A stretch of DNA of 60,879 bases from Halomonadaceae bacterium T82-2. GTDB taxonomy: Bacteria; Pseudomonadota; Gammaproteobacteria; Pseudomonadales; Halomonadaceae. Both the position numbers and the translations under genes were made by a program. The notes below the pieces were generated by a model, which saw nothing but the letters and a program-made list of their open reading frames with translations, was not told the origin of the DNA and searched no databases. Below, one piece after another: positions 12,259 to 56,088 of this stretch (within the stretch, counting starts at the first letter, position 1; each line of letters begins with the position of its first letter). The DNA is taken from assembly GCA_001577635.1 (NCBI GenBank), contig LSBP01000018.1, forward strand, positions 1-60,879. The letters run 5' to 3'.

Positions 12259-12340
12259 GAGAGCGGGCGACGGGAGTCGATCGGGTGGCGCACCACCGGG
12301 CTGGCGCACCACCGGGCTGGCGCACCAGATCGCGACCCTT
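12259..12340 (-). repeat. second tRNA-Gly 3'-tail repeat, triple hairpin insert
   Basis: Read on the minus strand this copies the tRNA-Gly tail: AAGGGTCGCGA, then an insert, then a diverged TCGACTCCCGTCGCCCGCTC. The insert replaces the start of the T-loop and holds three units with centres at about 12323, 12307 and 12291. The outer two fold as CTGG/CCAG and GGTGG/CCACC around TGCG loops. The terminal CCA is lost. It is the most distal and most decayed copy at this locus. Confidence 0.75.
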
Positions 12341-12358: not shown

Positions 12359-12424
12359 TGGAGCGGGCAACGAGATTCGATCGGATGGCGCACCACCGGG
12401 CTGGCGCACCAGATCGCGACCCTT
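12359..12424 (-). repeat. first tRNA-Gly 3'-tail repeat, double hairpin insert
   Basis: This minus-strand copy has the exact tRNA tail TCGAATCTCGTTGCCCGCTC with CCA, preceded by AAGGGTCGCGA, with a two-unit insert where the T-loop should begin. Hairpins are CTGG-TGCG-CCAG (12401-12412 on the plus strand) and GGTGG-TGCG-CCATC (12383-12397, one G-T pair). The 42 bases 12341-12382 match 12425-12466, inside the real tRNA, with one difference, showing duplication of tail plus downstream spacer. Confidence 0.8.
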
Positions 12425-12442: not shown

Positions 12443-12518
12443 TGGAGCGGGCAACGAGATTCGAACTCGCGACCCTCAGCTTGGGAAGCTGATGCTCTAC
12501 CAACTGAGCTATACCCGC
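12443..12518 (-). tRNA. tRNA-Gly(CCC)
   Basis: A 76-nt cloverleaf with encoded CCA. The acceptor GCGGGTA pairs with TGCCCGC, the anticodon loop is TTCCCAA inside a TCAGC/GCTGA stem, giving anticodon CCC, and the T-arm is GCGAG-TTCGAAT-CTCGT. It is transcribed away from the CBS-domain gene and is followed by two altered copies of its own 3' third. Confidence 0.97.
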
Positions 12519-55234: not shown

Positions 55235-55263
55235 TTGACAGCGGCAGGTGGCCTATTTACTAT
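55235..55263 (+). promoter_or_regulatory. promoter of the tRNA-Glu/Gly cluster
   Basis: A perfect -35 TTGACA (55235-55240) and a -10 TACTAT (55258-55263) are 17 bases apart. The GC-rich ACGCGCC that follows is a typical stringent discriminator. The first tRNA begins 30 bases after the -10. Confidence 0.88.
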
Positions 55264-55398: not shown

Positions 55399-55473
55399 GC
55401 GGGAATAGCTCAGTGGTAGAGCATCGCCTTGCCAAGGCGAGGGTCGCGAGTTCGAATCTCGTTTCCCGCTCCA
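55399..55473 (+). tRNA. tRNA-Gly(GCC), copy 1
   Basis: 75 nt with encoded CCA; anticodon loop TTGCCAA in a TCGCC/GGCGA stem gives GCC. T-arm GCGAG-TTCGAAT-CTCGT. Identical to the other two copies. Confidence 0.98.
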
Positions 55474-55498: not shown

Positions 55499-55549
55499 GA
55501 GGGTCGCGAGCCGGAACGCCGGTCCGATCCAATCTCGTTTCCCGCTCCA
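55499..55549 (+). repeat. tRNA-Gly 3'-tail repeat 1, one hairpin unit in the T-loop
   Basis: GAGGGTCGCGAG and the tail from AATCTCG to CCA are identical to the preceding tRNA-Gly, but between them lies CCGGAACGCCGGTCCGA (55511-55527), which folds as CCGG-AACG-CCGG. The D-arm, anticodon arm and 5' acceptor strand are absent, so it cannot be a tRNA. Confidence 0.88.
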
Positions 55550-55556
55550 GAATTGC

Positions 55557-55632
55557 GTCCCATTCGTCTAGTGGTCCAGGACACCGCCCTTTCACGGCGG
55601 TAACAGGGGTTCGAACCCCCTATGGGACGCCA
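55557..55632 (+). tRNA. tRNA-Glu(TTC), copy 2
   Basis: 76 nt, identical to copy 1. The seven bases upstream (AATTGC and neighbours) are also shared with copy 3, marking the edge of the tandem unit. Confidence 0.98.
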
Positions 55633-55660
55633 CTTCCGGTCTTGTCAGAGGTTGCAGGCT

Positions 55661-55735
55661 GCGGGAATAGCTCAGTGGTAGAGCATCGCCTTGCCAAGGC
55701 GAGGGTCGCGAGTTCGAATCTCGTTTCCCGCTCCA
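55661..55735 (+). tRNA. tRNA-Gly(GCC), copy 2
   Basis: 75 nt, identical to copy 1, with encoded CCA. Confidence 0.98.
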
Positions 55736-55761
55736 GTTTTTGGGGTAGCAGAAAATGTGAC

Positions 55762-55827
55762 GAAGGTCGCGAGCCGAAGCGTCGGCCCGGCGGAACGCCG
55801 CCCGATCGAATCTCGTTTCTCGCTCCA
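55762..55827 (+). repeat. tRNA-Gly 3'-tail repeat 2, two hairpin units in the T-loop
   Basis: Starts GAAGGTCGCGAG and ends TCGAATCTCGTTTCTCGCTC plus CA. The insert folds as CCGA-AGCG-TCGG (55774-55785) and GGCGG-AACG-CCGCC (55789-55802). Two substitutions from the tRNA sequence are visible in the flanks. Confidence 0.86.
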
Positions 55828-55834
55828 GAATTGC

Positions 55835-55910
55835 GTCCCATTCGTCTAGTGGTCCAGGACACCGCCCTTTCACGGCGGTAACAGGGGTTCGAACCCCCTA
55901 TGGGACGCCA
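55835..55910 (+). tRNA. tRNA-Glu(TTC), copy 3
   Basis: 76 nt, identical to copies 1 and 2. Confidence 0.98.
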
Positions 55911-55935
55911 CTTGCATCCTTGCCTTCCTTGAAAA

Positions 55936-56010
55936 GCGGGAATAGCTCAGTGGTAGAGCATCGCCTTGCCAAGGCGAGGGTCGCGAGTTCGAATCTCGTT
56001 TCCCGCTCCA
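55936..56010 (+). tRNA. tRNA-Gly(GCC), copy 3
   Basis: 75 nt, identical to copies 1 and 2; last real tRNA of the cluster. Confidence 0.98.
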
Positions 56011-56035
56011 GGAATTGATTCTTTGAAATATTCCA

Positions 56036-56088
56036 CGAGGGTCTCGAGCTGGAACGCCAGCCCGGTCGAATCTCGTGTCCCCCCTCCA
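56036..56088 (+). repeat. tRNA-Gly 3'-tail repeat 3, one hairpin unit, decayed acceptor
   Basis: CGAGGGTCTCGAG, then an insert folding as GCTGG-AACG-CCAGC (56048-56061), then TCGAATCTCGTGTCCCCCC with TCCA. The T-stem is kept while the acceptor strand has drifted. Confidence 0.84.

What the first reader, a model, noticed from the sequence alone, without database searches (positions are those of the whole stretch)
55499..56088. tRNA-Gly 3' fragments with covarying hairpin units inserted in the T-loop
After each tRNA-Gly(GCC) lies a truncated copy (variable loop, T-arm, 3' acceptor strand, CCA) in which the T-loop begins with one or two 15-17 nt units of the form YGG-NNCG-CCR followed by YCCGR. 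The stems are CCGG/CCGG, CCGA/TCGG, GGCGG/CCGCC and GCTGG/CCAGC: they differ in sequence but all pair, with loops AACG or AGCG. Compensatory change across copies is the signature of selection for RNA structure, not of decay. The outer T-stem GCGAG/CTCGT is also kept. The fragments are on the tRNA precursor and would be released by tRNA processing as roughly 50-70 nt structured RNAs ending in CCA. E. coli tyrT has tandem repeats bearing the last 19 bases of its tRNA, but I know of no described family with a variable hairpin insert in the T-loop.
Basis: partly seen in the sequence, partly recalled or inferred. Interest (0 to 1): 0.8.

Follow-up and report, generated by a model that had tools for sequence, protein, structure and literature searches.

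The report
Mobile-looking hairpin in tRNA-Gly fragments
Behind tRNA-glycine genes of this bacterium lie copies of the tRNA's tail end with a tiny 16-letter hairpin in one loop; the same hairpin turns up elsewhere in related genomes as a discrete insert, so it looks more like a very small mobile piece of DNA than a purpose-made tRNA-derived RNA.

Summary
All three tRNA-Gly(GCC) genes of the window are followed by a 3'-end fragment with one or two hairpin units in the former T-loop; two more fragments follow tRNA-Gly(CCC) near 12.3 kb. Fragment-level model matches occur in 177 of 275 family genomes. The same core sits in 3' fragments of tRNA-Gly, -Trp and -Pro in other Gammaproteobacteria.

The reading changes. 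The insert is a 16-nt module, TGGNNCGCCAGYCCGR, between T54 and T55, and is not specific to tRNAs. A pattern for it hits 136 times in 46 family genomes (reversed control 0). Of 34 such sites read away from known tRNA clusters, 27 lie in dispersed repeats. These repeats occur without it (36 sites) or with it (19), at C^TC. Besides the stem, loop base 3 and tail base 4 covary (C-G, G-C, U-A).

Best explanation: RtT-like tRNA-tail cassettes, made by tandem duplication, that host a mobile-looking 16-nt hairpin. The covariation belongs to the module, so it does not show a dedicated tRNA-derived RNA. Movement is inferred; no enzyme was found and a REP/RAYT link is not supported. Expression could not be tested.

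The parts
55235..55263 (+). sigma-70-like promoter TTGACA-17-TACTAT ahead of the tRNA cluster
   Evidence: consensus match only (10 of 12)
55399..55473 (+). intact tRNA-Gly(GCC) copy 1
   Evidence: ARAGORN, Rfam
55499..55549 (+). tRNA-Gly 3' fragment 1 (variable loop, T-arm, acceptor 3' strand, CCA)
55512..55527 (+). 16-nt hairpin unit of fragment 1 (preceding C at 55511 is the former T54)
55661..55735 (+). intact tRNA-Gly(GCC) copy 2
55762..55827 (+). tRNA-Gly 3' fragment 2, two units
55775..55790 (+). first unit of fragment 2 (stem CCGA/TCGG, loop AGCG)
55791..55805 (+). second, 15-nt unit of fragment 2 (loop AACG, tail CCCGA)
55936..56010 (+). intact tRNA-Gly(GCC) copy 3
56037..56088 (+). 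tRNA-Gly 3' fragment 3
56050..56065 (+). 16-nt unit of fragment 3
12443..12518 (-). intact tRNA-Gly(CCC)
12359..12424 (-). tRNA-Gly(CCC) 3' fragment A, two units (12411-12396 and 12395-12381)
12261..12340 (-). tRNA-Gly(CCC) 3' fragment B, three units (12327-12312, 12311-12296, 12295-12281); the matching fragment of G002 has two

Best explanation
The fragments are tRNA-tail cassettes: a spacer plus the last part of the tRNA, made by tandem duplication next to the gene and gained or lost by recombination between the identical tRNA 3' ends. Their T-loops host a separate genetic unit: a 16-nt hairpin module, TGGNNCGCCAGYCCGR, that behaves like a mobile micro-element placed at [C/T]^TC. Shown: presence and absence of the 16 nt in two kinds of dispersed repeat, presence at the same T-loop position of three tRNA species, stem covariation and loop-tail covariation. 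Inferred: that the cassettes arise by recombination; that the module moves; that it does so as a folded single strand; that tRNA fragments carry it because every tRNA T-loop contains TTC and only surplus, truncated copies tolerate an insert. Any RNA product would be secondary.
For: Pattern CTGGNNCGCCAGYCCGRT: 136 hits in 23 of 46 family genomes, 0 for the reversed control; up to 32 in one genome (its counts summed by me). Of 34 family sites read away from known clusters, 27 lie in the X/Y dispersed repeats by eye. X site, 5 of 6 genomes matching: 22 empty, 9 filled. Y site, 4 of 6 matching: 14 empty, 10 filled. All 10 filled Y sites have exactly 16 nt more; of the 9 filled X sites 8 were seen to the far end of the unit and fit 16 nt, one (G008:C79) was not seen beyond it. 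No third class appeared. One filled copy aligns with 7 empty ones; the filled one is in the window's own genome and its unit equals those of the tRNA-Gly(CCC) fragments. Aliikangiella has units in AT-rich simple sequence at AGC^TCTAG, without a known empty site. The same core sits in fragments of tRNA-Gly, -Trp and -Pro. Loop base 3 and tail base 4 are Watson-Crick in 38 of 43 distinct units (C-G 29, G-C 5, T-A 4); the most in 5000 shuffles was 33. Unit number differs between G000 and its near relative G002 in fragment B (3 against 2) and fragment 2 (2 against 1). G006 has a full-length tRNA-Gly body with two units in its T-loop, and fragments still holding the anticodon arm occur (L036; part of it in tRNA-Pro, L315): a graded series of truncation.
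Against: No filled and empty X/Y site with both flanks shared was found: among fetched loci a filled and an empty one share a neighbouring gene on one side only. No transposase is tied to the module: Y1_Tnp (PF01797, E <= 0.001) is absent from 7 of 16 unit- or fragment-bearing genomes searched. Persistence of the core behind tRNA-Gly across 14 genera, the mostly kept T-stem, and core divergence below that of the spacers (111 of 1350 against 181 of 1318 sites in 50 pairs, some with gappy spacer alignments) would also fit selection on an RNA. X and Y look like one superfamily, so they are not two fully independent contexts. Four of the 34 sites read had no repeat or tRNA context and may be chance; one was unclear.
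Confidence: 0.56

Rival explanations
1. A selected RtT-like small RNA: the fragment is cut out of the tRNA precursor, folds through the hairpin (with the T-stem, or in this family with an extra helix GGUCG/CGRUC) and acts in trans, for example as a decoy or sponge.
For: The extended hairpin pairs in 98.5% of cells on 26 sequences and is the RNAalifold consensus. The T-stem holds in 357 of 405 pairs at the best offset. Fragments 1 and 2 lie between tRNAs behind one promoter-like site, so they should be transcribed. RtT is a precedent. The core diverges less than the spacer.
Against: The covariation belongs to a dispersed module. 98 of 275 family genomes lack a fragment-level match. The extra helix is not seen in the tRNA-Trp fragments, by eye. 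Terminator-like sequence precedes many fragments elsewhere. The window fragments alone do not fold better than shuffles.
Confidence: 0.24
2. Pure tandem duplication and concerted evolution: one ancestral fragment with a hairpin was copied by recombination and hairpin arms were matched by template switching at the quasi-palindrome; nothing moves and nothing is selected.
For: Spacer plus fragment repeat in tandem. The last 16 nt equal those of the neighbouring tRNA in 72 of 112 fragments.
Against: The same module sits in other tRNAs, in dispersed repeats and in simple sequence, at the same kind of site; template switching does not readily explain loop-tail covariation.
Confidence: 0.12
3. Att-site remnants of integrative elements that use the tRNA-Gly 3' end.
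For: The tail equals a typical tRNA 3' att core (recalled from ICEclc-like elements, not tested).
Against: No match in the viral contigs for GGNNCGCCNNYCCGRTCGAATCNCG; the fragment also carries tRNA sequence on the 5' side of the insert; the module occurs away from tRNAs. Integrase genes were not searched for.
Confidence: 0.04

Closest known systems
RtT RNA (Rfam RF00391; rttR of E. coli tyrT)
   Same: Tandem units behind a tRNA gene, each ending in the tRNA's last bases through CCA, with a structured insert ahead of the tail. RtT-like sequences also occur in dispersed repeats (BIMEs) of enterobacteria (PMC2965389, passages read).
   Different: No RtT match at E up to 10 in the window region or up to 1 in seven carrier loci; different insert; ours carries a module also found away from tRNAs.
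REP / REPIN elements with RAYT (TnpAREP) transposases
   Same: Short palindromic dispersed units, tandem clusters, and a CT dinucleotide at the boundary (TnpAREP cleaves at CT: PMC8266576, passages read).
   Different: 16 nt rather than 20-40 (length from the abstract start of PMC3733652), no GTAG tag directly beside the unit in the contexts read, no inverted doublets in the loci read, sits inside tRNA T-loops and other repeats; Y1_Tnp absent from 7 of 16 carriers searched.
Rickettsia palindromic elements and mitochondrial double-hairpin elements
   Same: Mobile-looking palindromic inserts in genes and RNA loops (recalled; listing only).
   Different: Longer and unrelated in sequence, from recall; not compared here.
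rrA/rrB/rrF sRNAs between dual terminators of E. coli rRNA operons
   Same: Structured RNA between terminators of a stable-RNA operon, reached by read-through (PMC8144298, abstract read); like the fragments of Vibrionaceae in position.
   Different: No tRNA tail or hairpin module is described in the abstract.
3' external transcribed spacer of leuZ (RNA sponge)
   Same: A tRNA-precursor trailer with a regulatory role (recalled; listing only).
   Different: Not a tRNA-tail copy, from recall.

Membership tests
RtT RNA (RF00391) | match to the covariance model at the gathering score | tested here: not met
   no RtT hit; the K-12 control hits at 134-138 bits
RtT RNA (RF00391) | tandem units ending in the tRNA 3' end | tested here: met
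   not every tRNA has more than one unit
RtT RNA (RF00391) | stable RNA released from the tRNA transcript | not testable with these tools
   no RNA data on hand
REP/REPIN | dispersed short palindrome in many copies | tested here: met
   up to 32 copies per genome, 0 control hits; low beside typical REPs (>100, abstract start of PMC2817692)
REP/REPIN | GTAG or CGTC tag beside the palindrome | tested here: not met
   units and flanks, read by eye
REP/REPIN | RAYT (Y1 transposase) in unit-bearing genomes | tested here: not met
   no PF01797 match in G010, G008, G198, G016, G194, G058, G064; matches in 9 of 16 carriers and 5 of 11 genomes without the unit pattern; E. coli control rings
REP/REPIN | inverted doublets | tested here: not met
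   neighbouring units read are direct (L287, L295); only fetched loci were looked at
Mobile element (general) | filled and empty site at the same orthologous locus | tested here: inconclusive
   unit number differs at matching tRNA fragments of G000 and G002; no X/Y pair with both flanks shared
Functional tRNA | intact tRNA fold | tested here: not met
   ARAGORN and Rfam call only the intact genes in the window

The most novel reading that the evidence does not exclude
A 16-nt DNA module, far smaller than known transposable units, moves through gammaproteobacterial genomes as a folded single strand whose loop pairs with its own tail. It inserts at [C/T]^TC, uses the universal TTC of tRNA T-loops as a recurrent target, and thereby turns surplus tRNA genes into persistent tRNA-tail cassettes.
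Probability: 0.32. Interest if true: 0.9.

Novelty: new variant of a known kind. Interest (0 to 1): 0.7.

Why it matters
If the unit moves, it is a candidate for one of the smallest mobile DNA units, with a structure readable by covariation and a simple target, so its mechanism could be tested. It would also explain how structured inserts come to sit in tRNA-derived and repeat-derived RNAs without selection for an RNA, and it warns that covariation in a hairpin does not by itself prove a functional host RNA.

Tried and rejected
T-stem as broken: I first thought so from a fixed-offset count and from 84.6% of cells on 26 aligned fragments. Allowing for indels the T-stem is mostly kept, so I withdrew that point and moved 0.02 from the best explanation to the RNA rival. 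The best-offset count leans towards pairing. The extended helix GGUCG/CGRUC is kept in tRNA-Gly fragments (97.7% of cells), but GGUCG is tRNA sequence anyway and the Trp fragments lack it by eye, so I do not treat it as universal.

Core-only model R2 over 369 class genomes: 16 matched at E <= 0.003. The hits outside the family had no tRNA in their loci and mostly did not look like the unit; treated as chance. That draw shows no Vibrio carrier such as one search found.

RAYT as the mover: not supported. Viral carriage: none for one pattern. X/Y pairs with both flanks shared: none; alone compared only the 20 new loci with each other. Rfam for eight X/Y and related loci: nothing relevant. Single-stranded folding: X repeat z = -6.7 empty, -3.7 filled; one Y repeat -0.7, so Y is not shown to be a stem-loop. 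Literature: six unit or repeat sequences as text gave no paper; two searches gave none; listings showed nothing on this element by title or abstract start, and only some papers were opened. The primary RtT paper is not held. This is one open-access library, not proof of absence in print.

Rows dropped: 18 of 138 units fell outside the one-unit length, and 3 of 84 distinct one-unit fragments did not start with GTC. The regex restricted stem letters and found Gly fragments only; one search is the count without that restriction. In one search, 5 of 43 distinct units break the loop-tail rule (three T-G, one C-C, one C-T); at least two look like chance matches; it required loop base 4 G, tail base 2 C and tail base 3 C or T. 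One search, an earlier version, lost 3-bp second units and gave 29 of 32 (shuffle maximum 28).

Full report
WHAT IS THERE. The window holds three tandem blocks tRNA-Glu(TTC), tRNA-Gly(GCC), tRNA-Gly fragment. Each fragment repeats the tRNA from its variable loop to CCA, with one or two hairpin units in the T-loop. Two more fragments follow tRNA-Gly(CCC) on the other strand near 12.3 kb, and a sixth follows tRNA-Gly(GCC) on contig C31, ahead of tRNA-Cys and tRNA-Leu.

RELATIVES. A model of 26 one-unit fragments (A1, R1) was run over 275 genomes of the family. In genomes without a fragment match the best match, to intact tRNA-Gly, is mostly 1e-6 to 3e-5, so I counted only E < 3e-7: 177 of 275 genomes, 14 of 24 genera. 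Strict filters and a one-unit model make this a lower bound. In the order, 31 of 390 genomes drawn match at E <= 3e-7, 21 of them outside the family. In the Vibrionaceae stretches where an upstream tRNA was seen it is tRNA-Trp; in Enterovibrio and Vibrio sinus the fragments form tandem units of about 108 nt, in Enterovibrio each with a terminator-like hairpin and T-run. Vibrio sinus also has three tRNA-Pro fragments.

STRUCTURE. Over 81 distinct one-unit tRNA-Gly fragments the four hairpin pairs hold in 81 of 81, with CTGG/CCAG, CCGG/CCGG, CCGA/TCGG, CTGG/TCAG and TTGG/CCAG (the regex limited the letters but not the pairing). Anchored only by flanks, 134 of 139 tRNA-context inserts have all four pairs (the other five look like chance), and 27 of 33 distinct inserts from all contexts, against at most 22 in 2000 shuffles. 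The outer T-stem holds in 357 of 405 pairs at the best offset, with 79 of 81 fragments keeping at least four of five; it is often one pair short, for example GCAAG/CTCGT or GTGAG/CTCCT. A further, unexpected pair appears between the third loop base and the fourth base of the tail YCCGR. NNCG goes with YCCGR, NNTG with CCCAG, NNGG with CCCCG or CCCCA: 38 of 43 distinct units are Watson-Crick, at most 33 in 5000 shuffles. This suggests that the loop folds onto the tail. Shuffles ignore relatedness, so the numbers are not probabilities.

THE INSERT IS A SEPARATE MODULE. In the window's genome an exact unit lies on contig C4, with no tRNA in the fetched 1.2 kb, inside a dispersed repeat. Seven other copies of that repeat, in this and two related genomes, lack exactly the 16 nt TGGTGCGCCAGCCCGG; the same 16 nt occur in the tRNA-Gly(CCC) fragments of the window. 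Across 46 family genomes the unit pattern hits 136 times in 23 genomes, with no hit of the reversed control. I read 34 family sites away from known clusters: by eye 27 in the X/Y dispersed repeats, 2 in tRNA-Gly fragments, 4 without such context, 1 unclear. Patterns with a free gap of 0 to 30 nt gave, in six genomes each (5 and 4 matching), X sites 22 empty and 9 filled, Y sites 14 empty and 10 filled (tally 95). The filled Y sites are all exactly 16 nt longer; so are the filled X sites seen to their end (8 of 9). Longer listed X matches are second hits of the short 3' anchor. Aliikangiella has the unit in AT-rich simple sequence. Where the boundary of a first unit was read it is [C/T]^TC in the tRNA, X, Y and simple-sequence contexts; in tRNAs this is T54^T55-C56. 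Second units in an array follow a G or A instead.

HOW IT MOST LIKELY WORKS. Tandem duplication makes spacer-plus-tRNA-tail cassettes; recombination between identical tails would add or remove them (clean absence behind the first tRNA-Gly of the G002 cluster), and tails often equal the neighbouring tRNA (72 of 112 over 16 nt). The 16-nt module sits in their T-loops, alone or repeated. A full-length tRNA-Gly body with two units and fragments that keep all or part of the anticodon arm suggest that inserts kill surplus tRNA copies, which then shorten. In several close pairs spacers are nearly identical while the core differs at four to six positions at once, as if the module were swapped. How the module moves is unknown; movement itself is inferred from presence/absence.

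AGAINST. No filled/empty pair with both flanks shared was found outside tRNAs, no enzyme is known, and long persistence of the core and of the T-stem fits selection on an RNA as well. Co-transcription of fragments 1 and 2 with the tRNAs is likely from their position, but no product was shown.

KNOWN KINDS. The cassette works like the RtT repeats of E. coli tyrT but is not an RtT member by model. The module works like a REP in being a dispersed palindrome bounded by CT, but it lacks the GTAG tag and a consistent RAYT link (PMC8266576, PMC3116915 and PMC3733652, passages read). I therefore call it a new variant of a known kind.

Noticed in passing
L234 (G000:C4:26379-26540 approx.) and L257-L263: A dispersed repeat of about 160 bp (X), in several copies in this and related genomes; the empty copy L257 folds as single-stranded DNA with z = -6.7. 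The Y repeats of other genera look like the same superfamily by eye; one Y copy did not fold better than shuffles (z = -0.7).
   Followed up: partly
   Followed up: no
L210, Photobacterium proteolyticum, between tRNA-Asp and tRNA-Trp: A tRNA-Asp tail fragment with a variant unit CTTG-AACG-CAAG-CCCGG at another position, and a tRNA-Trp fragment with a second hairpin CCGG-AGTG-CCGG in its tail.
   Followed up: partly
L269-L273, L275 and L276 (other families of the order): Fragments of the form CYGG-NGCG-CCRG-CCGG; five of these seven loci (L269, L270, L272, L273, L275) have GCGACCC-type sequence upstream, complementary or nearly so to their GGGGTCGC, and several lie after a terminator-like sequence (by eye).
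   Followed up: partly
L063 (G006:C1:1974500-1975400): A full-length tRNA-Gly body with two hairpin units in the T-loop that ARAGORN does not call: a dead tRNA gene in a tRNA cluster.
   Followed up: partly
units in all contexts: First and last base of the tail YCCGR are associated (C..G 23, T..A 11, C..A 7, other 2 of 43 distinct units); no explanation.
   Followed up: no
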